A DNA stretch of 64,000 bases, taken from positions 2,294,001 through 2,358,000 of the forward strand of contig NZ_JACCCO010000001.1 in assembly GCF_013409935.1 (NCBI RefSeq). Reading direction: 5' to 3'. The stretch is from Streptosporangium sandarakinum (GTDB taxonomy: Bacteria; Actinomycetota; Actinomycetes; Streptosporangiales; Streptosporangiaceae). Shown piece by piece: positions 3,809 through 20,324 of the stretch (positions within the stretch are counted from its first letter, which is position 1; each line of letters begins with the position of its first letter). The notes under the pieces are model-generated. The model saw nothing but the letters and a program-made list of their open reading frames with translations, had not been told where the DNA came from and did not search any database. Both the position numbers and the translations under genes were made by a program.

Positions 3809-3960
3809 TTGACGTGCTCCCCGACATGAATGCCGGAGATTCAGCCCGTGCCACATGGCGCGGCACCTCTGTGGCTTCCTGTTTCGCTGGGTCCTGCCCT
3901 CCGCTAGGCGGCGGGTCTTACGGTCCCTCCGCAGGCGTTTCGCCTCTCCGCCCGTCCGGC
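3809..3960 (-). ncRNA. Probable omega RNA (TnpB guide RNA) with guide from the flank
   Basis: In IS605-type elements the tnpB 3' end plus the right end is processed into a guide RNA that reads into the flanking DNA. Here the tnpB stop (3904) is followed by ~95 nt ending in the terminal hairpin and CACGTCAA at 3809. The predicted guide is the minus-strand sequence from 3808 downward (begins atgctgcccg). The 5' limit is a guess; position and family knowledge are the only evidence. Confidence 0.5.
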
Positions 3961-5058
3961 GGCGAGGACGATCCGGGAGGCGTTGACGTCCTGGTCGTGG
4001 GTGGTCTGGCACGCCCCGCACGTCCATTCCCGGACGCTCAAGGGCTTGGGACCGTCGATCACGAAGCAGACCGAGCAAGTCTGCGACGACGGTAGGAAGC
4101 GGCCCACCTTGGCGAAGGTCCGCCCATACCGGGCCGCCTTGTACTCCAGCATGTCCACGAACGCCGACCATCCGACGTCGTGCACGCTCTTGGCCAGCCG
4201 TGTGCACGCAAGACCGTTCACCGCCAGGTCCTCGACGTACACCGTTTGGTCATCGCGGATGATCGCCGTGGACAGCTTGTGGTGGTGGTCCCGCCGCGCG
4301 TCCGCCACCCCGGCATGCGCCTTGGCGACCTTCACGACGGCTTTCCTGCGGTTGGCCGAGCCCTTCGCTTTTCTGCTGAGCGCCTTTTGCGCCTTCTTCA
4401 ACCGGCGTTCGGCACGGCGCAGAAAACGCGGGTTATCGATCTTCCGGCCGTCCGACAGGACCGCGAAGTGAGTCAGACCCAGGTCCACCCCGATCTGGGA
4501 CGTCGCCTCCGGCAACGGCTCGTCGCCCGTCTCGACCACGAACGAGGCGAAGTATCGGCCTGAGGCGTCCTTGGTCACCGTCACCGACGACGGCTCGGAC
4601 GGCAGATCCCGGGACCAGCGAAGCGTCACCTCCCCGATTTTCGGCAGGCGCAGCTTCCCGCCCGTCGTGATGGCGAATCGGGCGTTGCGGGTGAAGCGAA
4701 CCGTCTGCCGGGTGTCCTTGCGGGACCGGAACCGAGGCGGGGCCATCTTCGGCCCCTTCCGCTTCCCTGAGACCGAGGCGAAGAAGTTGCGGAACGCGGT
4801 GTTCAAGTCGGCGAGCGCCTGTTGAAGAACCACCGCGGACACCTCGCCCAGCCAGGCCCGTTCCGGTGTCTTCTTCGCCTGCGTGATCATCCGCTTGAAC
4901 AGGTCCCCATCGGAGAGGTACGGCAGACCTTGTTCGTGGGCTTGCTGTCTCAGGCGCAGCCCGTCATTGAACACCACTCGCGCGCATCCGAATGCCTTGG
5001 CCAGCGCTAGACGCTGGCCAGCGGTCGGGTAGAGGCGGAAGTTGTACCGGAGCTGCAC
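3904..5058 (-). CDS. tnpB: RNA-guided endonuclease TnpB (IS605 OrfB)
   Basis: 384 residues from a GTG start. The N-terminal OrfB helix-turn-helix-like region (YNFRLYPTAGQ) precedes a split RuvC nuclease. All three acidic residues are visible: D in GVDLGL, E in YVEDLA, D in HDQDVNAS. A four-cysteine zinc ribbon (CSVC...CGAC) sits between the last two. Length and motifs are those of an active TnpB, which cuts DNA under omega-RNA guidance and promotes transposon retention. It is divergent from tnpA with 22 bp between starts. The IS appears stranded but tnpB is not decayed. Confidence 0.93.
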   Translation of the reverse strand: MQLRYNFRLYPTAGQRLALAKAFGCARVVFNDGLRLRQQAHEQGLPYLSDGDLFKRMITQAKKTPERAWLGEVSAVVLQQALADLNTAFRNFFASVSGKRKGPKMAPPRFRSRKDTRQTVRFTRNARFAITTGGKLRLPKIGEVTLRWSRDLPSEPSSVTVTKDASGRYFASFVVETGDEPLPEATSQIGVDLGLTHFAVLSDGRKIDNPRFLRRAERRLKKAQKALSRKAKGSANRRKAVVKVAKAHAGVADARRDHHHKLSTAIIRDDQTVYVEDLAVNGLACTRLAKSVHDVGWSAFVDMLEYKAARYGRTFAKVGRFLPSSQTCSVCFVIDGPKPLSVREWTCGACQTTHDQDVNASRIVLAAGRAERRNACGGTVRPAA

Positions 5059-7746: not shown

Positions 7747-8658
7747 TCAGACGATCGGCGGGCGGCCCAGGCGGAGCATCCGCCAGGCCGTCTTCCAGCC
7801 CATGGGACGGCGCTCCCCGGCCGGTTCGCGCAGGCCCTCGGTGAACCCCCTGAACCACGCGCGCAGCGCCGTGCCGGAACGCTCGCGGACCAGGGTCAGC
7901 ACGATCCAGTTGACGAGGTACGGCACGGCCAGCGCCCAGGGCAGGTTGCGCCGGGCCAGCCAGACGCGGTTGCGCGCGTTGAGGCGGTAGAAGTCGGCGT
8001 GCCGGGTCGGCGGAACCTGCGGGTGGTACATGACGGTCTGCGCGTCGTACTCGATCCGGTAGCCCTCACCCAGCAGCCGCCAGGCCAGGTCGGTCTCCTC
8101 GTGGGCGTAGAAGAACCGCTCGGGGAGACCGCCGACCTGCAGGAAGGCCGACCGCCGGATGGCGCAGGCGCCGCCCAGGAACGTGGTGACCGGGGAGGAC
8201 CGCTCGGGGTCGCCCGCGCGCAGCCGCGGGACGTGCCGGCGCTGACCGGCGCCGCCGTCGGGGTCCTTCACCCGGAACGAGACGACCGCGAGGTCGTGCT
8301 CGGTGGAGAAGCGCTCGCGCAGGTGGGAGACGAGGCTCGTGTCGCCGTACCAGCCGTCGTCGTCGAGGAAGAGCACGACGTCGCCCGAGCACTCCTCGAC
8401 GCCGCGGTTGCGGCCGGCCGGGATGCCGGTGTTGTGGCTGAGCCGTATCGTCTTGATCGACGCCGACGAGCCCGGCGGCACGGTCACCGCCAGCTCGGGG
8501 ACGTCCGCGCCGTTGCCGACGATGACCACCTCGACGTCGCCGTCGACCTGGTTCAGCGCGGACTCGACCGCGCGGCCCAGCTCGGGGACCCGGGTGCCCA
8601 TGGTGAGGATGACGCACGAAATCTTCAACGGGTCATCGTCCTGACGCGTCGAGAGCAC
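7747..8658 (-). CDS. GT2 family glycosyltransferase
   Basis: 303 residues from GTG 8658; a TTG ten codons in, just before KISCVILTMG, is an alternative start. The GT-A fold is clear: CVILTMG, VGNGADVPE, GIPAGRNRGVE, and the metal-binding FLDDDGW. ED-type acceptor motif YAHEETDLAWRLL follows. A C-terminal amphipathic segment may touch the membrane. It resembles rhamnosyl/galactosyl transferases of surface glycans. It is the last gene of the leftward polymer cluster, 208 bp after the CDP-alcohol phosphotransferase. Confidence 0.85.
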   Translation of the reverse strand: MLSTRQDDDPLKISCVILTMGTRVPELGRAVESALNQVDGDVEVVIVGNGADVPELAVTVPPGSSASIKTIRLSHNTGIPAGRNRGVEECSGDVVLFLDDDGWYGDTSLVSHLRERFSTEHDLAVVSFRVKDPDGGAGQRRHVPRLRAGDPERSSPVTTFLGGACAIRRSAFLQVGGLPERFFYAHEETDLAWRLLGEGYRIEYDAQTVMYHPQVPPTRHADFYRLNARNRVWLARRNLPWALAVPYLVNWIVLTLVRERSGTALRAWFRGFTEGLREPAGERRPMGWKTAWRMLRLGRPPIV

Positions 8659-8866
8659 GTGCGGAACATACTTTCATGATCACCAGTCTGCTGGGTCGGG
8701 CGGCTGTGGCATTGCTGGAGCCCTCTGGTACGGAGGACAAGCGTATCGGAACCGTCGGCGAACACCCGCCAAACGACGCGGGATCTCCGCACCTACGACG
8801 CACCGCGACGCCGTCCGGTTCCGCGCCGTTCACTTCCCCGGCATCCGCCCTTCGGTCGCCCGGTGC

Positions 8867-9634
8867 TCACGAGAGCCGCCGGGAGGCCAGGATGCTGACC
8901 AGGTGCAGCGCCATCTGCAGCACGGCCACCACGACGCAGGCCACCGTCAGCACCCTGGTCGCGGCCAGGCCGCCGGCGATCTGGTCCCAGATCGCGGCGA
9001 CCACCACGAGGAGGGACAGCTCGACCGCCTGGACGATCCGGTGGAACCTCAGCGCGGCGGCGGCCCGGCGGGCCATTCCCAGGCCGCGTGAGCGGAAGTG
9101 CTCCGCCGACGCCTCGGTGGCCGCGACCAGGCCGGACCGGGCGCGCGCCACGTCCACCAGGTCGGTCTCCGCCTTGATCAGGATCGCGCCGAGCGCCGCG
9201 GCGAAGCCCAGCACGGTGTACCAGTCGGGACGGACCTCCGACGCCCGGAAGCCCAGCCCGATGAGCATGGCCGCCTCGGCGAAGTAGTGGCCGACCCGGT
9301 CGAGGTAGACGCCGGTGATGGAGGTCCGCCCGGTCCACCGCGCCAGCTCGCCGTCGGAGCAGTCGAGCAGCAGGTAGAGCTGGACCAGCAGGGCGGCCAG
9401 CACGGCGGCCCACAGGGTGGGCACCGCCAGGACCGCGCCCGCCAGCAGCCCGGTGAGGATCATCAGCCAGGTGGTCTGGTTGGGGGTGATCGGCGTCTTG
9501 GCCAGCACCCAGGTGACGTAGATCGACAGCTTGCGCATGTACAGCGCGCCGGCCCAGTGCTCACCGCTGTTGCGGTCCATGGTCGAGTGCGGCTGGGCGA
9601 CCGCGCGGAACTCAGCGACCGATGGTCCGGACAT
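8867..9634 (-). CDS. CDP-alcohol phosphatidyltransferase family protein (variant motif)
   Basis: 255 residues from ATG 9634 (GGTGGAAG upstream), overlapping the dehydrogenase stop by 23 bp. Six hydrophobic segments. The signature D-x2-DG-x2-AR-x8-G-x3-D-x3-D is present as DCSDGELAR...G...DRVGH: the last Asp, the proposed catalytic base, is His here. The family transfers a phospho-alcohol from a CDP-activated donor to an alcohol acceptor. With the adjacent G1P dehydrogenase and cytidylyltransferase, the donor may be a CDP-polyol; this is inference. The Asp-to-His change may signal an unusual acceptor or altered chemistry. Confidence 0.82.
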   Translation of the reverse strand: MSGPSVAEFRAVAQPHSTMDRNSGEHWAGALYMRKLSIYVTWVLAKTPITPNQTTWLMILTGLLAGAVLAVPTLWAAVLAALLVQLYLLLDCSDGELARWTGRTSITGVYLDRVGHYFAEAAMLIGLGFRASEVRPDWYTVLGFAAALGAILIKAETDLVDVARARSGLVAATEASAEHFRSRGLGMARRAAAALRFHRIVQAVELSLLVVVAAIWDQIAGGLAATRVLTVACVVVAVLQMALHLVSILASRRLS

Positions 9635-10670
9635 AATCTTCCACCCGATCGCGGATCTCGGCCTCGGACAGGCGCAGGTGCTCAAGGATCGTGTAGCGGC
9701 CCGGGCGGGTCGCCGGGGCCAGCACGACCGCCTCGGTGAACTGCTCCACGCTCAGCCCGATGTCGGCGGGGCTGACCGGGAGGTCGTGCGCGCGCAGGCA
9801 CTCGGCGACCTGGCCGAGTCTCCGTTCGTCCTCGCGCAGGAAGAAGCAGAAGGCGGCACCGATCCCGGCGAGCTCGCCGTGGTTGGAGGTGCCGGGGAAG
9901 AGCTGGTCCACGGCATGAAGGATCTCATGATCTCCGCCGCTCGAAGGACGGGAGGACCCGGCGATCACCATCGACATCCCCGAGAGGATGAGCGCCTCGG
10001 CCAGCACGGTCAGGAACGCGTCGGACTCGACCGAGTCGGACCGCCCCATCACCGCCTCCGCCGCGGTGCGGGCCATCGCGCAGGCCACGCCGTCGATCGG
10101 CTCGCCGCGCTCGGCGTTGCCGAGCTGCCAGTCCTCGATCGCCGACAGGTTGCTCACCACGTCGCCGACGCCGGAGCGGACCAGCGACGACGGAGCGTCG
10201 TGGACGAAGTCGAGGTCGACCATGATGGCCAGCGGCATCGGCACGCCGAAGGACCCCTTGCCGCCGTCGTGGGTCAGCGACGCCACCGGCGAGCAGATCC
10301 CGTCGTGCGACAGGTTGGTGGCCACCGCCACCATCGGGATGCCCGCGAGCGACGCGGCGTACTTCGTGGCGTCGATGGTCTTGCCGCCGCCGATGCCGAC
10401 GACCGCCTCGTAGGCGCCCTTGCGCAGGTCGGCGCCGAGCGTGACCGCGGCGTCCACCGAGCCGTCGGGCACCCGGAAGACCCGGGCCTCGTCGAGGGAG
10501 GGGGCGATGATCGAGGTGATCTTGTCACCCTGACCGGCGCCCACCGCCACCGCCACCCGCCCGGAGGTCGCCACCCGGCTGTCGGCCAGCAGCGAGCCGA
10601 GCTGGGCGATCGCCCCCCGCCGCACCTCCATGGTCAGGGGGGCGGGGAGCATCCTGGCTAGTATCGGCAC
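9612..10670 (-). CDS. Glycerol-1-phosphate dehydrogenase-like (EgsA/AraM) iron-type alcohol dehydrogenase
   Basis: 352 residues from GTG 10670, overlapping the upstream stop by 13 bp. NAD-binding GIGGGKTIDATKYAA and metal ligands in SHDGICSPVASL (Asp), SSGGDHEILHAVD (His) and NHGELAGIG (His) match the EgsA/AraM group, which reduces dihydroxyacetone phosphate to sn-glycerol-1-phosphate in archaea and Bacillus. The same fold includes dehydroquinate and 2-epi-valiolone synthases, but the NDG/SHDG loop favours G1PDH. It is tightly coupled to a cytidylyltransferase and a CDP-alcohol phosphotransferase, suggesting dehydrogenase, CDP activation and transfer in sequence. Confidence 0.8.
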   Translation of the reverse strand: MPILARMLPAPLTMEVRRGAIAQLGSLLADSRVATSGRVAVAVGAGQGDKITSIIAPSLDEARVFRVPDGSVDAAVTLGADLRKGAYEAVVGIGGGKTIDATKYAASLAGIPMVAVATNLSHDGICSPVASLTHDGGKGSFGVPMPLAIMVDLDFVHDAPSSLVRSGVGDVVSNLSAIEDWQLGNAERGEPIDGVACAMARTAAEAVMGRSDSVESDAFLTVLAEALILSGMSMVIAGSSRPSSGGDHEILHAVDQLFPGTSNHGELAGIGAAFCFFLREDERRLGQVAECLRAHDLPVSPADIGLSVEQFTEAVVLAPATRPGRYTILEHLRLSEAEIRDRVEDYVRTIGR

Positions 10671-11392
10671 GCGATCTCCCGCGCCTTGGCCAGGTCGTCG
10701 TGGTTGTCCACCTCGACCCAGGAGACCTCGCCGATCGGGGCGATCGCGATCTTCTCCCCGCGGTCGACCATCTCCTGGTAGCCGTCCTCGTAGTACAGCT
10801 GCGGGTCGCGCTCGAAGGTGGCCCGCAGGGCGTCGGCCAGCCGCTCGGCGGCGCCGGGACGGATCAGCGTCGCGCCGATGTACTCGCCGGCCGCGGTGGC
10901 CGGGTCCATCAGCTTGGTGATCCGCGCGAGGTGGCCGTCACCGTCGAGGGTGACCTTCATCTCCTCGTCGGCGAGCTTCTTGACGTCGTCGACCGCGAGC
11001 AGGATGTCACTCGTCTCCGGCGCCGACAGCAGGGTGTGCTCCACGGAGACCGGGTGCACGGTGTCGCCGTTGACCAGCAGCACGCCCTGCTCGAAGTAGT
11101 CGCGGGCGCACCACAGGGAGTAGGCGTTGTTCCACTCCTCGGCCTTGTCGTTGTGCACGAGGGTGAGCTTCACGCCGTGCCGCCGCTCCAGCTCGGCCTT
11201 GCGCTCGTGTACGGCCTGCGCCTGGTAGCCGACGACGACCACGACGTCACGGAGATCGGCCGCCGCGAGGTTCCGCAGCGAGATGTCCATGATCGTGGTG
11301 TCGCCGTCGACCGGCACGAGCGCCTTGGGCAGCGTGTCGGTGTACGGCCGCAGGCGTCGTCCGGCCCCGGCGGCCAGCACCATTCCCAGCAA
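10658..11392 (-). CDS. NTP transferase / phosphocholine cytidylyltransferase-like
   Basis: 244 residues from TTG 11392, preceded by GAGGAG. The nucleotide-binding signature MVLAAGAGRRLRPYT...PKALVPV is intact, as is the metal-binding LLVNGDTV and the C-terminal VDNHDDL. Annotated relatives are phosphocholine or polyol-phosphate cytidylyltransferases. The likely role here is to activate the phosphate ester made by the neighbouring dehydrogenase as a CDP derivative. An alternative is a hexose-1-phosphate substrate. Confidence 0.82.
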   Translation of the reverse strand: MLGMVLAAGAGRRLRPYTDTLPKALVPVDGDTTIMDISLRNLAAADLRDVVVVVGYQAQAVHERKAELERRHGVKLTLVHNDKAEEWNNAYSLWCARDYFEQGVLLVNGDTVHPVSVEHTLLSAPETSDILLAVDDVKKLADEEMKVTLDGDGHLARITKLMDPATAAGEYIGATLIRPGAAERLADALRATFERDPQLYYEDGYQEMVDRGEKIAIAPIGEVSWVEVDNHDDLAKAREIACRY

Positions 11393-11480
11393 CGTGCACT
11401 CCTCATCCGAATGAGCCCCTCCTCGGGCGCTCCTGGCCCCAAAGGTTAGTTGCCTTTACGCCCCGATGGTGTATTCGGAG

Positions 11481-11498
11481 GTTCACCGGAGGTTCCTC
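11481..11498 (+). promoter_or_regulatory. PHO-box-like direct repeat
   Basis: GTTCACC (11481) and GTTCCTC (11492) lie exactly 11 bp apart, the geometry and first-7-base consensus of Streptomyces PhoP direct repeat units. The repeat sits ~90 bp upstream of the cytidylyltransferase start. It suggests phosphate control of the polymer genes; only two units are seen and one is imperfect. Confidence 0.35.
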
Positions 11499-12129
11499 AT
11501 CCGGCGTCGGCGGGCTCACCGGGCTCGGCGGCGTCCGCCCCGGGGCCCGGCGCGGCCAGCCAGCAGGTGACGCTCTCCCACCCGAAGAGCCCCCACAGGT
11601 AAAGGGAGAGCAACACGAACAGGAGCGTGACCTGCCCGGCGAGGCCGCCCAGCGCGATCAGCAGCATCCGGCCGTCCCAGCCGAAGCCGACGGTGGCCAG
11701 CCAGGCCGGCGGGTAGACCCGCTGCCGCAGCCGGTAGACGAGGTCGTAGTGGTGGAAGGCCATCGCGCCGAGCAGCAGGAAGATCAGCCAGTACGGCACG
11801 CCGTGCGCGAACCCCACCGCGGCCGCGAAGCCGTACTCGGTGAGGCGCAGGATCGGCGGCACCAGCCAGTCGAGCCGGCCGTCGTGCGGGTGGGAGCTGC
11901 CGGGACCGGCCAGCAGCAGCGCCACCGCCGGGGCGAACACCGCCAGGCCGTCGGCGCCGGCCACCCCGACCAGCAGCAGCACCGCGGCCACGAACGTGCC
12001 GGCGAGCACGGGCGGCAGCGGCGGGAGCTGCCCGGCCACCAGCGCGCCCATCGCCCGCGACAGCACCCCGTCGTCGCGGTAGGCGACGAGGGTGCCGCGC
12101 GGCGCCGTCGTCATCTGCACGGTCGTCAC
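11497..12129 (-). CDS. DUF5941-type membrane protein
   Basis: 210 residues from GTG 12129. Begins near YRDDGVLSRAMGALVAGQLPPLPP, then about five membrane helices and RLRQRVYPPAWLATVGFGWDGRML. I recognise the pattern of DUF5941, a domain of unknown function found beside or fused to CDP-alcohol phosphotransferases in actinomycetes. It lies between two such transferases. Possibly a membrane partner or acceptor-binding subunit; no catalytic residues are evident. Confidence 0.7.
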   Translation of the reverse strand: MTTVQMTTAPRGTLVAYRDDGVLSRAMGALVAGQLPPLPPVLAGTFVAAVLLLVGVAGADGLAVFAPAVALLLAGPGSSHPHDGRLDWLVPPILRLTEYGFAAAVGFAHGVPYWLIFLLLGAMAFHHYDLVYRLRQRVYPPAWLATVGFGWDGRMLLIALGGLAGQVTLLFVLLSLYLWGLFGWESVTCWLAAPGPGADAAEPGEPADAG

Positions 12130-12220
12130 GATCGCATCCGCCTCACCGCCCGCATCGCGGCCCGTCCCCCGCCCGGCGGCCGGGCGGCGCCCCCGCGGGA
12201 CCCGTCGCTCGTGGTCATGG

Positions 12221-14086
<1,866 letters not shown>

Positions 14087-14241
14087 GACCGGGCTCCTTC
14101 GTATCCGACGGGATGACCGTGCGAATCGGGAGTGCGCACTTAGCGTAGCGAGATCTTGACCGGATAGCACGGGAGCGCGGCCTGCGATCGGGTACGCACC
14201 CATTACGCTCGCGGTAACCGCACCGTCGAAGGAAGCTGACC

Positions 14242-15654
14242 TTGGCCGCTCTGGAACCACGCCTCCGCACCGTCGCCGTCGTTCTCGCCGGAGGCGTCGG
14301 CCAGCGGGTCGGGCTGAACACCCCCAAGCAGCTCATCAAGGTCGCCGGCCGGACGATCATGGAGCACACGCTGTCGGTGTTCGACGCGGCGCCGGAGATC
14401 GACGAGATCGTGGTTCTGATGACGCCGGGCTTCACCGTCGACGTGGAGCGGCTCGTCGCCCGCAACGGCTTCCGCAAGGTCAGCAAGGTCCTGGAGGGCG
14501 GCGCGACCCGCCCGGAGACCACGTGGCGGGCGCTGCAGGCGCTGGGCACGCGGGAGTGCGACGTGCTGCTGCACGACGCCGTGCGGCCGCTGCTGGAGCC
14601 GCGGATCATCACCGAGTGCGTCGAGGCGCTGAAGGTGTACTCGGCCGTCGACGTGGCGATTCCCAGCTCCGACACGATCGTGGTGGCCGCCCCCGGCCCG
14701 CGCGGGGAGATCGTCCGCGACGTCCCCGACCGGTCCCGGCTGCGGCGCGGCCAGACGCCGCAGTGCTTCCGGCTCTCGGTGGTCCGCGAGGCGTACGAGC
14801 GGGCCTTCGCCGACCCCGACTTCGACCGGCAGCCGCCCACCGACGACTGCGGCGTGGTGCTGCGCTACCTGCCCGACGTGCCGATCTACATCGTGCCGGG
14901 CAGCGAGCACAACATGAAGGTCACCCACCCGGTGGACGTGTTCATCGCCGACAAGCTCTTCCAGCTCGCCGCCGGCGCCGCCCCGCACCACTCCGCCTTC
15001 GCCCACCGGCAGGCGCTGCAGGGCAGGACCGTGGTGGTCTTCGGCGGCAGCTACGGCATCGGCGCCGAGGTCGTGGAGCTGGCCGGGCGGCACGGCGCCC
15101 AGGTGTTCCCCTTCTCCCGCTCGCTGAACGGGGTGCGGGTGGAGGACCCGCAGGCGGTGAGCGACGCGCTCGACCTCGCGGCCAAGGAGACCGGCCGGAT
15201 CGACTACGTCGTCAACACCGCCGGGGTGCTGCACATGGGCGACCTCGGCGAGGCGAACGACGCCACGGTCGCCGAGACCGTCGGGGTGAACTACATCGGC
15301 CCGGTCAACATCGCCCGGGCCGCCCTGCCCCACCTGCGCGAGACCCGGGGCCACCTGCTGCTGTACACCTCGTCCTCCTACACCCGGGGCCGGGCCGGCT
15401 ACAGCCTCTACTCCTCCACCAAGGCCGCCGTGGTCAACCTGACCCAGGCGCTGGCCGACGAGTGGGCCGAGGACGGCGTGCGGGTCAACTGCGTCAACCC
15501 CGAGCGGACCAGCACCCCGATGCGGGTGCGCGCGTTCGGCGAGGAGCCCGCGCACACCCTGCTGTCGCCGCGCGCCGTCGCCGAGACCTCGCTGGACGTG
15601 CTGATCTCCGACATCACCGGGCACGTGATCGACGTCCGCGTCGACGCGGGCTGA
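14242..15654 (+). CDS. Bifunctional CDP-ribitol synthase-like (IspD/TarI-type cytidylyltransferase + SDR reductase)
   Basis: 470 residues from TTG 14242 with GAAGGAAG upstream. Residues 1-235 form an IspD/TarI cytidylyltransferase (VVLAGGVGQRVGLNTPKQL, HDAVRPL, RGQTPQCF). Residues ~250-470 are an SDR (VVFGGSYGIGAE, NTAGV, YTSSSY, YSLYSSTKAA). The same fusion occurs in Haemophilus Bcs1/Acs1, where ribulose-5-phosphate is reduced to ribitol-5-phosphate and activated with CTP. It is divergent from the CDP-alcohol phosphotransferase operon and followed by a polymerase, which fits polyol-phosphate wall polymer synthesis. Exact polyol is inferred. Confidence 0.82.
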   Translation: MAALEPRLRTVAVVLAGGVGQRVGLNTPKQLIKVAGRTIMEHTLSVFDAAPEIDEIVVLMTPGFTVDVERLVARNGFRKVSKVLEGGATRPETTWRALQALGTRECDVLLHDAVRPLLEPRIITECVEALKVYSAVDVAIPSSDTIVVAAPGPRGEIVRDVPDRSRLRRGQTPQCFRLSVVREAYERAFADPDFDRQPPTDDCGVVLRYLPDVPIYIVPGSEHNMKVTHPVDVFIADKLFQLAAGAAPHHSAFAHRQALQGRTVVVFGGSYGIGAEVVELAGRHGAQVFPFSRSLNGVRVEDPQAVSDALDLAAKETGRIDYVVNTAGVLHMGDLGEANDATVAETVGVNYIGPVNIARAALPHLRETRGHLLLYTSSSYTRGRAGYSLYSSTKAAVVNLTQALADEWAEDGVRVNCVNPERTSTPMRVRAFGEEPAHTLLSPRAVAETSLDVLISDITGHVIDVRVDAG

Positions 15655-15776
15655 CCCGGCGTCCCATCGGCCCTCCCGCGTCCCGGCGTCCTCCCGGGGC
15701 CTCCGCCGTACCCCGGCGGAACGCGGCACAGCGCGCCTACCAGGGCAAACAGCCTGGTCAAAGTTACCTTCTAAGG

Positions 15777-17570
15777 ATGAAGCGTGACCTTCGCGCACTG
15801 GTGGCGGCCGCCGCCGTGCTCGGCTCGTACCCGGCGCTCCTCGTGACCGCGCTGTGGCCCCGGCCACGCCTGTTCCTGGCCCTGTGCGCGGTGTCCTACG
15901 CGGCCGAGGTCGTCGCGCGGTACCGGGCGCGCCCCCTGGTCGACCTGATGGCCAGGGCGCACCTGGGCGTCACGCTCCGGTTCGTGACGCGGGAGACGGC
16001 GGTGATCGTCCTGGTCGCCCGTACGGCGGGCACCGCGTCGCCCTGGTTCGCGGGCCTGGTCCTGGGGATCTTCGCGGTGCACGGCGCGCGGGGCCTGCTG
16101 GCCGGGCTGGCGCTCCTCCACCAGCGCACCCTCAACCGGATGCCGGTGCTGACCCGCAACCTCGACGCGGTGCGGGTCCCGCCCCCGCCGTGGCGCGTCC
16201 TGACCGACCACCGGGGCATGCGGCCGCTGTACCTGGACGTGTTCCCGGTGGGCGGCGCGGCCCTGGGCGCGCTGTCCGGCACCGCCCTGCCGGGCGCCGC
16301 GGGGGCGGCCGGGGCGCTGGCCGTCGCGGGCGCGGGCGCGCTGTGCCTGCTGCCGCACCTGCGCCGGGTCCGGCCGCTCGGCGACGGCGCCGCGGTGCTG
16401 CGGGCCGCCGGGGAGCGCCTGGCGGCCCACCGGCCGGAGGTCGCCCTCTACTTCTCCGGTCCCCCCGACTCGGCCTACCAGGCCCGGATGTGGCTGCGCC
16501 CGCTGGAGCGGATCGACCGCCGGGCCGTGGTGGTGCTGCGGGAGCGGGAGATGCTGCGGCTGCTGGGAGAGACCTCGCTGCCCGTGGTGTGCATCCCCTC
16601 GGCGGCCGACCTGATGGGGTTCGAGGCCCTCGCCGGTGTGCGGGTGTGCCTGTATCCGGCCAACGTCGGCAAGAACATCCACATGCTCCGCATCCGGGGG
16701 ATGCGCAGCGTCTTCGTGGGGCACGGCGACAGCGACAAGGAGGCGTCGTTCAACCCGTTCACCAAGGTCTACGACGAGGTGTGGGTGGCCGGGCAGGCCG
16801 GGCGCGACCGCTACCTCCGTGCCCGGGTGGGCGTGCGCGACGAGGACGTCCACGAGGTGGGCCGCCCCCAGCTCAGCGGGGTCGGCACCGGCGGGCCGGG
16901 CCTGCCGTACCGCACGGTGCTGTACGCGCCGACCTGGGAGGGGTGGACCGACGACCTGTTCCACACCTCGATCATGACGATGGGCCCGGCGATCGTCCGG
17001 GCCCTGCTGGCCCACTCCCCGGCGGTCCGGGTGATCTACAAGCCGCACCCGCTGACGGGCTACCGCAACCCGGCCGCGCACCGCGCCCACCAGCAGGTCC
17101 GCGCGCTGCTGGACCGGGCGGAGCTGCACCGGTCGATGGCCCGCCACCCCTCGGGCGGGGGACGTCGCCCGGGCGCCGGGGCGGTCAGGCACCTGGTCGT
17201 CACCGGTCCCGAGCCGGCCCTCTACGACTGCTTCAACCAGTCGGACCTGCTGGTCACCGACATCTCCAGCGTGGTGGCGGACTTCGTCGCCAGCGGCAAG
17301 CCGTACGCGGTGACCAACGTGGCGGGGCTGCCGGAGCAGGCGTTCCGCGAGCGCTACCCGAGCACCGAGGGCGGCTACCTGCTCTCCGCGGACCTGCGGG
17401 AGCTGCCCGCCGTGCTGCGGGCCATGGAGGAGGACGGGGAGGACGCCCTGGCGGCCACGCGGCGCAAGCTGCGGACCTACCTGCTCGGCCCGGACCACCC
17501 GGACGCCATGACCCGCTTCAACGACGCGGTGAACGGCGCCTGCGAGCGGGCCGTGCGCGCGCACGGATGA
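15777..17570 (+). CDS. CDP-glycerol/ribitol phosphotransferase-like (TagB/TagF family)
   Basis: 597 residues from ATG 15777. The N-terminal ~215 residues carry several membrane helices; the rest is a GT-B-like polyol-phosphate transferase. Family motifs are present: FVGHGDSDKEASFNPF, LYAPTWEGW, VIYKPHPLTG and LLVTDISSVVADF. This family builds glycerol- or ribitol-phosphate chains from CDP-polyols at the membrane. No Shine-Dalgarno is seen; TACCTT ends 6 bp before ATG, so the transcript may be leaderless. It lies 122 bp after the CDP-ribitol synthase. Confidence 0.87.
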   Translation: MKRDLRALVAAAAVLGSYPALLVTALWPRPRLFLALCAVSYAAEVVARYRARPLVDLMARAHLGVTLRFVTRETAVIVLVARTAGTASPWFAGLVLGIFAVHGARGLLAGLALLHQRTLNRMPVLTRNLDAVRVPPPPWRVLTDHRGMRPLYLDVFPVGGAALGALSGTALPGAAGAAGALAVAGAGALCLLPHLRRVRPLGDGAAVLRAAGERLAAHRPEVALYFSGPPDSAYQARMWLRPLERIDRRAVVVLREREMLRLLGETSLPVVCIPSAADLMGFEALAGVRVCLYPANVGKNIHMLRIRGMRSVFVGHGDSDKEASFNPFTKVYDEVWVAGQAGRDRYLRARVGVRDEDVHEVGRPQLSGVGTGGPGLPYRTVLYAPTWEGWTDDLFHTSIMTMGPAIVRALLAHSPAVRVIYKPHPLTGYRNPAAHRAHQQVRALLDRAELHRSMARHPSGGGRRPGAGAVRHLVVTGPEPALYDCFNQSDLLVTDISSVVADFVASGKPYAVTNVAGLPEQAFRERYPSTEGGYLLSADLRELPAVLRAMEEDGEDALAATRRKLRTYLLGPDHPDAMTRFNDAVNGACERAVRAHG

Positions 17571-17676
17571 ACCGCGCGGCGGCCCGGCCCGCGGGCGGAC
17601 AGGACGGACCGGGCGGACCGATCACCGATCAGTCCGGCCGTACACCGGCGCCGGGTCGTTCGGCCCGCCGCGCCGC

Positions 17677-18720
17677 TCAACCGGACGCCGCGCCGGGCCT
17701 GCTCAGCCGCCGGGGGCTCGTCAGGAACCCCCAGCCCCACGACATGTGCATGGTGGCGTAGACGAGGGGCAGCCGCAGGCGCGCGCCCGTCGGCAGGCCG
17801 CTGCCGGTCACGGCCGAGCCGGCCAGGATCGCCAGCGCGTAGCCCCCGGGGATCAGCAGGCCGGGCCAGAAGAACGGGGACACGACGAAACCCGCGATGA
17901 TGGCCGCCACCGCCACCGGGGGTGCGAGGTAGCGCAGGTTGATGGTGCCCTCGTGGGTCCTGGCCACCACCCTGCGCCAGCGGCCGTAGTGGAAGTACTG
18001 CTTGGCGAGGGCCTTGACCGAGGGCCTGGGCCGGTAGGAGACCCGCATCCGGGGCTGGAACCACACCAGGCCGCCCGTCTCGCGGATGCGGTGGTTCATC
18101 TCCCAGTCCTGGGCGCGCTGGAAGTGCTCGTCGTAGCCGCCGACCCGCTCCAGGGCCTCGCGGCGGAAGACCCCGAGGTATACCGTGTCGGCCGGGCCCG
18201 CCGTACCGCCGGTGTGGAACCGGGCGCCGCCGACGCCGATCTTGGACGTCATGGCGCGGGCCACGGCCTGCTCGAACGGCGTGACGCCCTCGGCGGCCAT
18301 GACGCCGCCGACGTTGTCGGCGCCGGTCTCCTCCAGGGTCTCCACGGCCACCCTGAGGTAGTCGTCGGGGAGCATGGCGTGCCCGTCCACCCGCGCCACG
18401 ATGCCGTGGCGGGAGGCGGCGATGGCGGCGTTGAGGGCGTTGGGAGTGCGGCCGGTCGGGTTCGGCACCACGACGACCCGGGGGTCCTCGGCGGCGATCG
18501 CGTCGGCGACCTCCTGCGTGCGGTCCCTGGACGGGCCGATGGCGAGCACGACCTCGATCGGGCCTGCGTACCGCTGCGACAGGACCTGCCGCACGGCCTC
18601 CCGAAGGTGGCGCTCCTCGTTCAGCACCGGGATGACGACGGAGATGGGGGGCCAGACACGTGTCTCGGGGGACGACGCCGGCGCGGGCGAGTCGGGAAAC
18701 TGCTTCATGGCGTGGCTCAC
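17677..18720 (-). CDS. GT2 family glycosyltransferase with membrane tail (ExoA-like)
   Basis: 347 residues from GTG 18720; ATG 18708 is equally possible. GT-A domain: SVVIPVLNEERHL, NPTGRTPNALN, ARVDGHAML (metal-binding DGH in place of DxD, as in ExoA), and acceptor motif RAQDWEMNHRI (QDWE, like ED). Two to three C-terminal helices anchor it in the membrane. It resembles succinoglycan-type ExoA enzymes. Convergent with the TagB/F gene and divergent from the LCP gene. Confidence 0.87.
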   Translation of the reverse strand: MSHAMKQFPDSPAPASSPETRVWPPISVVIPVLNEERHLREAVRQVLSQRYAGPIEVVLAIGPSRDRTQEVADAIAAEDPRVVVVPNPTGRTPNALNAAIAASRHGIVARVDGHAMLPDDYLRVAVETLEETGADNVGGVMAAEGVTPFEQAVARAMTSKIGVGGARFHTGGTAGPADTVYLGVFRREALERVGGYDEHFQRAQDWEMNHRIRETGGLVWFQPRMRVSYRPRPSVKALAKQYFHYGRWRRVVARTHEGTINLRYLAPPVAVAAIIAGFVVSPFFWPGLLIPGGYALAILAGSAVTGSGLPTGARLRLPLVYATMHMSWGWGFLTSPRRLSRPGAASG

Positions 18721-18779: not shown

Positions 18780-20324
18780 ATGCGCGACCCGGAAGACGAC
18801 GACTCGGGTGTGCAGATCGGCGGCGACGCCTACGGCAAGGTACGGCTGGCCCCCCGGCATGAGCGCAGGCCGGCCGGGAGGGCGCGGTCCCGGCGGCGCG
18901 GACTGCTCGTCGCGGGCGCGCTGTCGTCCCTGGTGCTGGGCGGCTCGGGGGTGATGTGGGCGCTGCCGAACTACGCGGCCGGCAAGATCCAGGCGGTCGA
19001 CGCGGGGGTGGCGGGGTCGCGGCCCACCGGCGCGATGAACATCCTCGTCGTCGGCGTGGACCGGCGCGACGACCTCTCCAGGCAGCAGCAGAACGCGCTG
19101 AAGCTGGGCCGCGAGTCCGGGCAGCGCACCGACACCATGATGGTGGTCCACCTGTCGGAGGACCACGGCAGGGCGACCGTGGTCAGCCTTCCCCGCGACA
19201 CCTGGACGACGATCCCCGGCAAGGGCGACCACAAGATCAACGCGGCGTACCAGCTCGGCGGCCCGAAGCTCGCCGTACGCGCGGTGCAGGCCGTGACCGG
19301 GCTGACGATCAACCATTACGTCGAGGTCAACGTGCTCGGCTTCATCGACGTGGTGGACGCGCTCGGCGGCGTCTCGGTCTGCACGCCGGTTCCGATCAAC
19401 GATCCCAAGACCGGGCTGAACCTCCAGCCGGGGACGTACCCGCTGAACGGCGTCAAGGCCCTCTCCTACGCCCGCACCCGGGCCACGGCCCGCTCCGACC
19501 TCGACCGGATCGACCGTCAGCAGCAGGTGATCTCGGCCCTGCTGCACCAGGCGCTCAGCGGCGGCACGCTGACCAACCCGGCCAGGCTCGTCTCGTTCGT
19601 CGACAGCACCCTCGGCACGCTCCGGGTGGACGACGCGCTCCGCAAGGATCTGCTCGGCCTGGCCCGGCAGATCAAGGACGTCTCCACCGACGACGTCGCC
19701 TTCGCCACCGTCCCGCTCGCCGACGTCGACTACAAGACCCCGACGGGCGAGTCGGCCGTGCTGTGGGACAAGGACGCGGCCAGGGAGCTGTTCCGCCGGA
19801 TCGCCGCCGACGAGCCGCTCGTCAAACCCTCGAAACCCGCCTCCCCCGCCGCGTCCGCCCCGGCGACGGCCTCCCCTTCGCCCGCCCCCTCGTCCACGGC
19901 CGGCGCGCTGACCGTGCCGCCCTCGCGGATCTCCGTCAAGGTGCTCAACGGCACCACGACCCCCGGTCTCGGCGCGCGGGTCAGGGGCGAGTTGCAGGGG
20001 GCCGGCTTCATGGTCCCCGAGGCCGCCGGCAACACCCCTGAGAAGGACCACGACGGGACGGTGGTCCGATACGGTCCCGGCCGCGAGGACTCGGCCCGGA
20101 CCGTGGCCGCCGCCCTGCACGGGGCCGAGACGCGCCAGGTGGACGACCTCGGCGACCGGATCGAGGTCGTCGTCGGCCGGCGGTACCCGGGGGTCCGGAA
20201 GGTCACCGTCGACGAGGCCGCGGCGCCGTCGGCCACCTCGTCCGCCGCGCCGTCCGCGGGACCGTCCGCGCCCAGCGCCACCCCGGCGGCCAGGACGGCG
20301 ACGGAGAACATCTGTAAAAAGTAA
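18780..20324 (+). CDS. LytR-CpsA-Psr (LCP) family ligase with LytR_C domain
   Basis: 514 residues; ATG 18780 with AGGGGG upstream. A short cytoplasmic tail, one membrane helix (~residues 41-61), then the extracellular LCP domain with its conserved arginines and aspartates: RTDTMM, VSLPRDTW, YARTRAT...DLDRIDRQQQ. After a Pro/Ser/Ala linker, a LytR_C domain (ISVKVLNGTTTPGLGARV) and an Ala/Ser tail ending ICKK. LCP enzymes transfer lipid-linked wall polymers to peptidoglycan, so this is the likely last step for the adjacent locus. Confidence 0.93.
   Translation: MRDPEDDDSGVQIGGDAYGKVRLAPRHERRPAGRARSRRRGLLVAGALSSLVLGGSGVMWALPNYAAGKIQAVDAGVAGSRPTGAMNILVVGVDRRDDLSRQQQNALKLGRESGQRTDTMMVVHLSEDHGRATVVSLPRDTWTTIPGKGDHKINAAYQLGGPKLAVRAVQAVTGLTINHYVEVNVLGFIDVVDALGGVSVCTPVPINDPKTGLNLQPGTYPLNGVKALSYARTRATARSDLDRIDRQQQVISALLHQALSGGTLTNPARLVSFVDSTLGTLRVDDALRKDLLGLARQIKDVSTDDVAFATVPLADVDYKTPTGESAVLWDKDAARELFRRIAADEPLVKPSKPASPAASAPATASPSPAPSSTAGALTVPPSRISVKVLNGTTTPGLGARVRGELQGAGFMVPEAAGNTPEKDHDGTVVRYGPGREDSARTVAAALHGAETRQVDDLGDRIEVVVGRRYPGVRKVTVDEAAAPSATSSAAPSAGPSAPSATPAARTATENICKK

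What the first reader, a model, noticed from the sequence alone, without database searches (positions are those of the whole stretch)
7747..18720. Polyol-phosphate locus combining a G1P dehydrogenase, two CDP-alcohol phosphotransferases, DUF5941 and CDP-ribitol/TagF-type genes
Seen: an EgsA/AraM-type dehydrogenase, a cytidylyltransferase, DUF5941 and two CDP-alcohol phosphotransferases in a leftward cluster (the genes from 11392 to 8867 overlap), divergent from an IspD-SDR fusion (Bcs1-like) and a TagB/F polymerase, with an LCP ligase nearby. Known: EgsA makes sn-glycerol-1-phosphate, Bcs1 makes CDP-ribitol, LCP attaches polymers to wall. Inference: the cell makes a CDP-activated G1P-type donor and moves it to a polyol or lipid acceptor, giving a wall polymer or phospholipid of unusual stereochemistry. 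I know of no described pathway with this exact set.
Basis: partly seen in the sequence, partly recalled or inferred. Interest (0 to 1): 0.75.

Follow-up and report, generated by a model that had tools for sequence, protein, structure and literature searches.

The report
Actinobacterial glycerol-1-phosphate envelope gene module
A conserved set of neighbouring genes in filamentous soil bacteria looks built to make and activate an unusual mirror-image glycerol phosphate and put it into a cell-envelope molecule; the genes are there, but what they make has not been shown.

Summary
The leftward genes (CPTa, DUF5941, cytidylyltransferase NTP, EgsA-like dehydrogenase, CPTb, GT2; window 14086-7747) form a module kept in order in Streptosporangiales, Streptomyces (CPTa and DUF5941 fused; beside ABC-exporter and hopanoid genes) and other actinobacteria: all six in 63 of 100 EgsA loci, NTP-EgsA-CPTb-GT2 in 89. 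In 50 related genomes CPTb is in 41 of 41 with EgsA and 0 of 9 without. IspD/GT2b/LCP genes are steady neighbours only in the Streptosporangiales loci; TagF is optional. Two findings were not predicted. CPTb lacks the catalytic fourth aspartate of the CDP-alcohol phosphotransferase signature in 90 of 90 loci (His 69, Ala 21). DUF5941 has a predicted CDP-alcohol-phosphotransferase fold but no active-site motif. Best reading: DHAP to sn-glycerol-1-phosphate (EgsA), to its CDP form (NTP), then transfer in the membrane (CPTb, CPTa-DUF5941), sugar addition and export as an envelope glycerophospho-lipid or polymer. Substrates, chirality and product are inferred. The Streptomyces neighbourhood was listed in a 2026 synteny paper, without mechanism in the passages I read. 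Verdict: new variant of a known kind; a candidate for the unexplained LtaS-independent lipoteichoic acid synthesis of actinobacteria.

The parts
7747..8658 (-). GT2 glycosyltransferase (GT2a), end of the block
   Evidence: PF00535 5.1e-19; tblastn hit in 90 of 100 EgsA loci
8867..9634 (-). CPTb: CDP-alcohol phosphotransferase-like protein with His in place of the fourth (catalytic) Asp
   Evidence: PF01066 3.8e-5; motif DCSDGELARWTGRTSITGVYLDRVGH; H 69 / A 21 of 90; with EgsA in 41/41, without EgsA 0/9
9612..10670 (-). EgsA/AraM-type dehydrogenase (putative sn-glycerol-1-phosphate dehydrogenase)
   Evidence: PF13685 1.6e-30; PDB 4rgq/4rfl 5e-42; conserved D170, H248, H264
10658..11383 (-). NTP: LicC-like cytidylyltransferase
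   Evidence: PF00483 1.2e-14; PDB 1jyk CTP:phosphocholine cytidylyltransferase 4.4e-12; overlaps the EgsA start by 13 bp
11497..12129 (-). DUF5941: multi-helix membrane-type protein with a predicted CDP-alcohol-phosphotransferase fold and no DxxDGxxA motif
   Evidence: PF19365 3e-25; AF2 pLDDT 86.4; Foldseek top five all CDP-alcohol phosphotransferases
12221..14086 (-). CPTa: degenerate nucleotidyltransferase-like N-terminus + CDP-alcohol phosphotransferase with full signature (ORF open to 14260; start uncertain)
   Evidence: PF01066 1.1e-9; motif DCVDGQLARYTRMFSPVGAWLDATFD; fused to DUF5941 in Streptomyces
14242..15654 (+). IspD-SDR fusion (Bcs1-like, putative CDP-ribitol synthesis); neighbour, not core
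   Evidence: PF01128 4.8e-43, PF00106 6.5e-33; best PDB 4jis ribitol-5-phosphate cytidylyltransferase 3.8e-28; hit in 72 of 100 loci
15777..17570 (+). TagF-like polyol-phosphate transferase with N-terminal hydrophobic part; optional neighbour
   Evidence: PF04464 6.6e-7; hit in 28 of 100 loci and 15 of 50 related genomes
17677..18720 (-). GT2 glycosyltransferase (GT2b); neighbour
   Evidence: PF00535 4e-24; hit in 72 of 100 loci
18780..20324 (+). LCP ligase with LytR_C domain; neighbour
   Evidence: PF03816 7e-47, PF13399 1.8e-19; LCP hit in 69 of 100 loci

Best explanation
The six leftward genes are a conserved actinobacterial module that makes a CDP-activated polyol phosphate, most likely CDP-(sn-glycerol-1-phosphate), and spends it in the membrane. 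EgsA reduces DHAP to sn-glycerol-1-phosphate (inferred from family). NTP couples it to CMP (inferred). CPTb, a CDP-alcohol phosphotransferase that has replaced its catalytic aspartate by His or Ala (shown in sequence), and CPTa, which keeps the full signature and works with DUF5941 as a catalytically dead partner domain (inferred from structure prediction and from the gene fusion), transfer the phosphoglycerol unit onto one or two membrane acceptors (inferred). GT2 adds sugar and an ABC-2 exporter moves the product outwards (inferred). The product is an envelope glycerophospho-glycolipid or teichoic/lipoteichoic-type polymer. The IspD-SDR/TagF/LCP genes next door most likely belong to a separate ribitol-type wall polymer pathway.
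For: All six genes in order in 63 of 100 loci, NTP-EgsA-CPTb-GT2 in 89, NTP directly beside EgsA in 97 (loci). Named Streptomyces example. EgsA in 141 of 150 family genomes at E<=1e-60. CPTb (E<=1e-25) in 41 of 41 EgsA-positive and 0 of 9 EgsA-negative genomes. CPTa-DUF5941 matched in 101 of 101 genomes of the Streptomyces genus g3, 8 of them partially. EgsA metal and substrate positions conserved. NTP keeps its nucleotidyltransferase motifs and its best solved relative is LicC. CPTb keeps 7 of 8 signature residues in 90 of 90 and resembles AF2299 and IPCT-DIPPS; the latter couples a cytidylyltransferase to a CDP-alcohol phosphotransferase. A glycerophosphodiester phosphodiesterase gene lies in 36 of 100 loci, in at least two unrelated groups. 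TagG+TagH-type exporter genes lie in 28 of 100 loci.
Against: No substrate is shown. EgsA misses the NCBIfam G1PDH equivalog cut-off (236 of 413 bits), so another ketose phosphate is possible. CPTb lacks the residue whose D-to-N change nearly abolishes activity in PIP synthase, so it may be inactive or do other chemistry. The window genome's own TagGH is elsewhere, and TagG is also in 9 of 9 EgsA-negative relatives, so a dedicated exporter is not shown. No CPTa hit (45 bits) was found in 33 of 100 loci. In the distant loci L133-L136 and L139, NTP-EgsA occurs without an adjacent CPTb. IspD, GT2b and LCP genes are stable neighbours in the named set (72, 71 and 68 of 80 loci), so a shared pathway there is not excluded.
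Confidence: 0.5

Rival explanations
1. EgsA acts on a different carbonyl substrate (another phosphorylated ketose or aldehyde), and NTP activates that alcohol phosphate; the module makes a different CDP-alcohol for an envelope lipid or polymer.
For: Score below the G1PDH equivalog cut-off; NTP's best solved relative is a phosphocholine cytidylyltransferase and it also matches inositol-1-phosphate cytidylyltransferase.
Against: Best solved relatives are G1P dehydrogenases; metal ligands and the DG..SP, GD..SN and H...H positions are conserved; GDPD genes as neighbours.
Confidence: 0.25
2. The whole region is one ribitol or glycerol wall teichoic acid locus (IspD-SDR, TagF, LCP), with the leftward genes only supplying side groups.
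For: Physical linkage is kept: IspD-type hits in 72, GT2b in 71 and LCP in 68 of the 80 named loci; Bcs1-like, TagF-like and LCP domains; TagF was found only in EgsA-positive genomes (15 of 41 versus 0 of 9). The recount of the linkage made me raise this from 0.12 to 0.15.
Against: TagF in only 15 of 41 EgsA-positive genomes; IspD-type hits in 0 of the 20 unnamed-genome loci, including the five streptomycete loci with the block, which lie beside hopanoid genes.
Confidence: 0.15
3. The module makes a small phosphodiester solute (like di-myo-inositol phosphate or diglycerol phosphate of archaea), not an envelope polymer.
For: CPTb's best sequence relatives in the PDB are AF2299 and IPCT-DIPPS; AF2299 is also the top fold match of the CPTa-DUF5941 model.
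Against: A GT2 in 90 of 100 loci and exporter genes in 28 of 100; the hosts named here are mostly mesophilic soil genera (general knowledge).
Confidence: 0.08
4. CPTb is a pseudoenzyme that only scaffolds or regulates CPTa, which does all the chemistry.
For: D4 absent in 90 of 90 loci, Ala in 21.
Against: Seven other signature residues invariant in 90 of 90; CPTb is present in L131 and L132, where no CPTa or DUF5941 hit was found in the stretch fetched.
Confidence: 0.25

Closest known systems
EgsA / AraM sn-glycerol-1-phosphate dehydrogenases (archaea, Bacillus subtilis)
   Same: Fe-ADH fold family, conserved metal ligands, best PDB matches
   Different: Below the NCBIfam equivalog cut-off; sits beside a cytidylyltransferase; an AraM-type gene on a Priestia plasmid sits among arabinose genes instead
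IPCT-DIPPS / AF2299 (cytidylyltransferase coupled to CDP-alcohol phosphotransferase)
   Same: Same two activities paired; CPTa has a nucleotidyltransferase-like N-terminus plus phosphotransferase
   Different: Separate NTP gene with intact motifs, EgsA supply, altered active site in CPTb, extra DUF5941 domain
Streptomyces syntenic region of PMC13118837 (CDP-alcohol PT, GT2, sugar-phosphate NT, tagG, tagH, araM, crtB)
   Same: Apparently the same module in Streptomyces
   Different: In the passages I read the paper lists it under teichoic acid biosynthesis and secondary metabolism; no mechanism, DUF5941 or active-site analysis in those passages
LtaS-dependent lipoteichoic acid and TagD/TagF wall teichoic acid synthesis
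   Same: Poly- or oligo-glycerol phosphate envelope product is plausible
   Different: LTA takes sn-glycerol-1-phosphate from phosphatidylglycerol outside the cell and WTA uses sn-glycerol-3-phosphate from CDP-glycerol (PMC5974469); here a cytosolic CDP-G1P is proposed
Bcs1-type CDP-ribitol synthesis with TagF/TarL polymerases
   Same: IspD-SDR and TagF-like neighbours on the + strand
   Different: Not part of the conserved core outside the Streptosporangiales loci

Membership tests
sn-glycerol-1-phosphate dehydrogenase (EgsA/AraM) | Metal ligands Asp/His/His and the DG..SP motif (ligand roles recalled; positions read from the alignment to 4rgq) | tested here: met
   D123 101/101, D170 100/101, H248 101/101, H264 101/101
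sn-glycerol-1-phosphate dehydrogenase (EgsA/AraM) | NCBIfam NF002022 equivalog cut-off (413 bits) | tested here: not met
   235.8 bits; still by far the best family (next 59 bits)
sn-glycerol-1-phosphate dehydrogenase (EgsA/AraM) | DHAP reduction giving G1P | not testable with these tools
   needs enzyme assay
CDP-alcohol phosphotransferase (CPTb) | Eight-residue signature D1xxD2G1xxAR...G2xxxD3xxxD4 (PMC4634129) | tested here: not met
   7 of 8 residues in 90 of 90; D4 is H in 69, A in 21; the 8 other PF01066 loci of the same genome, CPTa included, all have D4
CDP-alcohol phosphotransferase (CPTa) | Eight-residue signature | tested here: met
   complete in 59 of 64 loci; 5 with no motif match in the frame taken; 3 further loci dropped because the hit was another CDP-alcohol phosphotransferase; 33 of 100 loci had no CPTa hit
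CDP-alcohol phosphotransferase (DUF5941) | Membrane fold of the family | tested here: met
   AF2 pLDDT 86.4; Foldseek ranks 1-5 all CDP-alcohol phosphotransferases, prob 1.00, TMq 0.57-0.61, but E only 0.045-0.13
CDP-alcohol phosphotransferase (DUF5941) | Active-site signature or significant sequence similarity | tested here: not met
   no DxxDGxxA in 78 of 78 separate ORFs; hhalign probability 1.0% to CPTa and 0.2% to CPTb; no PDB profile hit
LicC-like cytidylyltransferase (NTP) | LAAGxGxR...PK loop and NNxYS motif | tested here: met
   well conserved in the 98-sequence alignment; distant loci have GNFHS or NNWWS variants
Dedicated TagGH exporter of the module | Presence tracks EgsA | tested here: not met
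   TagG in 50 of 50 genomes including 9 of 9 without EgsA, although TagG+TagH hits are near EgsA in 28 of 100 loci
Wall teichoic acid locus (TagF-dependent) | TagF polymerase tracks the module | tested here: not met
   15 of 41 EgsA-positive genomes, 0 of 9 negative; 28 of 100 loci
Bcs1 CDP-ribitol synthase | Cytidylyltransferase fused to SDR reductase in that order (order in Bcs1 recalled) | tested here: met
   IspD 11-238, SDR 263-430

The most novel reading that the evidence does not exclude
CPTb needs no catalytic base because its acceptor is a phosphate group: it moves sn-glycerol-1-phosphate from CDP-glycerol onto a polyprenyl phosphate, giving a polyprenyl-diphospho-glycerol primer. After glycosylation and export, this is the missing LtaS-independent route to sn-glycerol-1-phosphate lipoteichoic acid in actinobacteria, with DUF5941 as a dead half of a pseudo-dimeric phosphotransferase.
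Probability: 0.1. Interest if true: 0.88.

Novelty: new variant of a known kind. Interest (0 to 1): 0.62.

Why it matters
The module's CPTa-DUF5941 gene was found in all 101 genomes searched of the Streptomyces genus, and EgsA in 141 of 150 of the window's family, yet I found no assigned function. If the module makes CDP-sn-glycerol-1-phosphate, it is a cytosolic source of the mirror-image glycerol phosphate usually ascribed to archaea, and a concrete candidate for how actinobacteria that carry lipoteichoic acid but lack clear LtaS orthologues (PMC3196553, passages) make it. It also gives a structural hypothesis for DUF5941 and flags a clade of CDP-alcohol phosphotransferases whose 'absolutely conserved' catalytic aspartate is gone.

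Tried and rejected
Dedicated TagGH exporter: rejected as a claim, because TagG is also in EgsA-negative genomes. One pathway with TagF/IspD-SDR/LCP: not adopted, because TagF is in 15 of 41 EgsA-positive genomes and the block occurs without these genes in Streptomyces; kept as a rival because the linkage is strong in the named loci. Sequence-only homology of DUF5941 to CDP-alcohol phosphotransferases: not significant; only the fold supports it. DUF5941 as a frameshifted tail of CPTa in this window: rejected, because separate ORFs recur in 78 loci and a true fusion exists in Streptomyces. Literature on the Streptomyces genes by SCO number (SCO6752-SCO6757, numbers recalled): one paper by listing, not about them. 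DUF5941 with Streptomyces: no paper. Stereochemistry of actinomycete teichoic acids and unusual CDP-alcohol phosphotransferase active sites (20 of 133 papers listed): search listings only. Passages of PMC13011467, PMC9640686 and PMC3123327 and PMC9385802 gave nothing used; PMC11481543 and PMC7831098 only identified PdtA (SCO2578) as an LCP ligase. Rfam found nothing in the window. EgsA relatives on Nitratidesulfovibrio and Cytobacillus plasmids have unrelated neighbours.
Full report
What is there. On the minus strand, in transcription order: CPTa (about 14086-12221), DUF5941 (12129-11497), NTP (11383-10658), EgsA-like (10670-9612), CPTb (9634-8867) and a GT2 (8658-7747). NTP overlaps EgsA by 13 bp and EgsA overlaps CPTb by 23 bp. 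On the plus strand an IspD-SDR fusion (14242-15654) is divergent from CPTa, followed by a TagF-like gene (15777-17570); a GT2 (18720-17677, minus) and an LCP ligase (18780-20324, plus) come next. The best EgsA matches in a named collection are Streptosporangium and Planomonospora (90-91%), so the host is Streptosporangiaceae-like; its genome is 7.65 Mb.

The module is conserved. A recount (tblastn hits of 45 bits or more) gives: all six genes in order on one strand in 63 of 100; NTP-EgsA-CPTb-GT2 in 89; NTP directly beside EgsA on the same strand in 97 (missing in L129, L132, L140); CPTb adjacent in 90; DUF5941 in 84; CPTa in 67, three of these being other phosphotransferases. CPTa is missing by this test mainly in Nocardiopsis-type loci, although a phosphotransferase-like ORF precedes DUF5941 in L090 (by eye).

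Streptomyces. The unnamed genus g3 is Streptomyces: its 19.9-kb locus L138 matches Streptomyces fungicidicus NZ_CP023408.1 over 95% at 86%, where the annotated order is DUF5941 protein, phosphocholine cytidylyltransferase family, iron-containing alcohol dehydrogenase, CDP-alcohol phosphatidyltransferase, glycosyltransferase, ABC permease, ABC ATPase, hpnC, hpnD, hpnE, polyprenyl synthetase, shc. In all five g3 loci fetched with the block, HpnC/D/E hits follow; a sixth g3 locus (L129) is a lone extra EgsA copy. In L138 CPTa and DUF5941 are one protein, which found a match in 101 of 101 genomes of the genus at E<=1e-40, 8 of them only partial.

Which genes belong together. EgsA is in 141 of 150 genomes of the window's family at E<=1e-60. 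I then searched 50 of those genomes: all 9 without such a match and 41 of the 141 with one. CPTb (E<=1e-25) was in 41 of 41 EgsA-positive and 0 of 9 EgsA-negative genomes. TagF (E<=1e-40) was in 15 of 41 and 0 of 9. TagG (E<=1e-20) was in 50 of 50, including all 9 EgsA-negative ones, which speaks against a dedicated exporter; in six EgsA-positive genomes only weak TagG matches (26-29%) were found, all within about 4 kb of EgsA. In the 100 loci, IspD-type hits lie in 72 (72 of 80 named, 0 of 20 unnamed), GT2b in 72 (71 of 80), LCP in 69 (68 of 80) and TagF in 28. So these neighbours are stable inside the named, mainly Streptosporangiales set but not outside it. At least in L090 the hit is IspD without SDR. 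TagG and TagH hits of 70 bits or more both lie in 28 of 100 loci. A GDPD gene (glycerophosphodiester phosphodiesterase) lies in 36 of 100 loci, confirmed by Pfam in the three tested. Many of these loci are related and not independent, but L135/L136 are far from the Nocardiopsis/Actinomadura group.

EgsA and NTP. EgsA's best solved relatives are M. jannaschii G1P dehydrogenase (E 5e-42) and Clostridium 3ce9 (species names recalled). The positions of the metal ligands and the DG..SP motif are conserved in 100-101 of 101 sequences. It scores 236 bits against the G1PDH equivalog model, below its 413 cut-off: G1PDH activity is likely, not shown. A published study included a Streptomyces sequence among its G1PDHs and found bacterial G1PDHs as a subgroup (PMC5059525, passages). 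NTP's best solved relative is LicC-type phosphocholine cytidylyltransferase, and its nucleotidyltransferase loop and NNxYS motif are kept. PMC5974469 (passages) states that sn-glycerol-1-phosphate in LTA comes from phosphatidylglycerol outside the cell and that sn-glycerol-3-phosphate of WTA usually comes from CDP-glycerol in the cytosol; a cytosolic CDP-G1P would be unusual.

CPTb lacks the catalytic aspartate. PMC4634129 (passages) describes eight absolutely conserved signature residues, with D4 the likely base and D4-to-N nearly inactive. Of 92 loci with a CPTb hit I dropped L134 and L139 (33-38% hits more than 7 kb from EgsA). In the remaining 90 of 90, seven residues are intact and D4 is His (69) or Ala (21). 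The Ala cases are 16 named Nonomuraea loci and the 5 streptomycete loci, while at least one other Nonomuraea locus (L074) has His, so His was probably lost twice. CPTa keeps D4 in 59 of 64 loci, with no motif match in 5 and 3 loci dropped as wrong hits. The 8 other PF01066 loci of the window's genome, CPTa included, all have D4. Either the acceptor does not need a base (for example a phosphate), His takes over in most lineages, or CPTb has another role. I rate the base-free phosphate-acceptor idea at 0.1.

DUF5941 is probably a dead CDP-alcohol phosphotransferase domain. The AF2 model of the window protein is confident (pLDDT 86.4). The five best PDB matches of 350,542 chains are AF2299 (four chains) and IPCT-DIPPS, probability 1.00, TM-score 0.57-0.61 by query length, though with E-values of only 0.045-0.13 (none at or below 0.001); PIP synthase and PGP synthase appear further down among unrelated helical proteins. 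Sequence tests fail: hhalign gives 1.0% probability to CPTa and 0.2% to CPTb, although the CPTa alignment pairs DUF5941's DWLVPPxxRxxEY stretch with CPTa's AWLDATFDRxKEY stretch, and there is no PDB profile hit. No DxxDGxxA motif is in 78 of 78 separate DUF5941 ORFs. The fused Streptomyces protein also models well (pLDDT 89.8, pTM 0.85), and AF2299 is its top match. I infer a pseudo-dimer of one active and one inactive half; the outputs do not show this directly, because I had no coordinates.

Most likely function. DHAP to G1P to CDP-G1P to a membrane acceptor, then glycosylation and export of an envelope glycerophospho-lipid or polymer. The first two steps follow from the families and their fixed coupling; acceptor, chirality and product are inference. 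The LTA link is attractive because S. hygroscopicus has polyglycerolphosphate LTA while actinobacterial genomes lack clear LtaS orthologues, so that paper suggests an alternative pathway (PMC3196553, passages). The authors favour a route shared with wall teichoic acid, and the words 'stereochem' and 'sn-glycerol' do not occur in its text. PMC10269677 (passages) reports two TagGH pairs in S. roseosporus, one regulated by TagR and one constitutive; I could not tell which, if either, corresponds to the module's pair.

Known or new. PMC13118837 (passages) already lists the Streptomyces gene neighbourhood (CDP-alcohol phosphatidyltransferase, GT2, sugar phosphate nucleotidyltransferase, tagG, tagH, araM, crtB) under teichoic acid biosynthesis and secondary metabolism. 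My searches (open-licence PMC only, long lists seen only in part) showed no functional study of this module, no paper with both 'Streptomyces' and 'DUF5941', and no title or abstract start about a CDP-alcohol phosphotransferase lacking D4 (20 of 133 listed). Subscription journals were not searchable.

Noticed in passing
L129:9379-10449 (unnamed g3 genome G334): A second EgsA copy sits alone, next to obgE-like and ribosomal-protein-like genes and a large RNase E-like ORF (names by eye), without NTP, CPTb or CPTa hits.
   Followed up: no
L121:8378-10858 (genome G204): NTP-EgsA is followed by a different CDP-alcohol phosphotransferase that keeps the fourth Asp (DCADGQLARVTGQGSAAGARVDVLCD), with no CPTb, CPTa or DUF5941 hit.
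   Followed up: partly
L133, L134, L139 around EgsA: Distant NTP-EgsA pairs lie in polysaccharide-type neighbourhoods; in L134 they sit beside a PF01663 phosphodiesterase and a Bac_transf sugar transferase, suggesting a separate use of the same two enzymes.
   Followed up: partly
window 3904-5058 (-): ORF that looks like an OrfB/TnpB-type transposase protein by eye (no family search run), left of the region.
   Followed up: no
G000:C2:1775963-1777742 (L142:9964-11743): The window genome's TagG/TagH pair stands apart from the module and from any hopanoid gene I recognised by eye, unlike in Streptomyces.
   Followed up: partly
Nonomuraea loci such as L058 and L069, and L123, L124, L130, L137, L138: The His at the catalytic position of CPTb has apparently been replaced by Ala twice independently.
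   Followed up: partly
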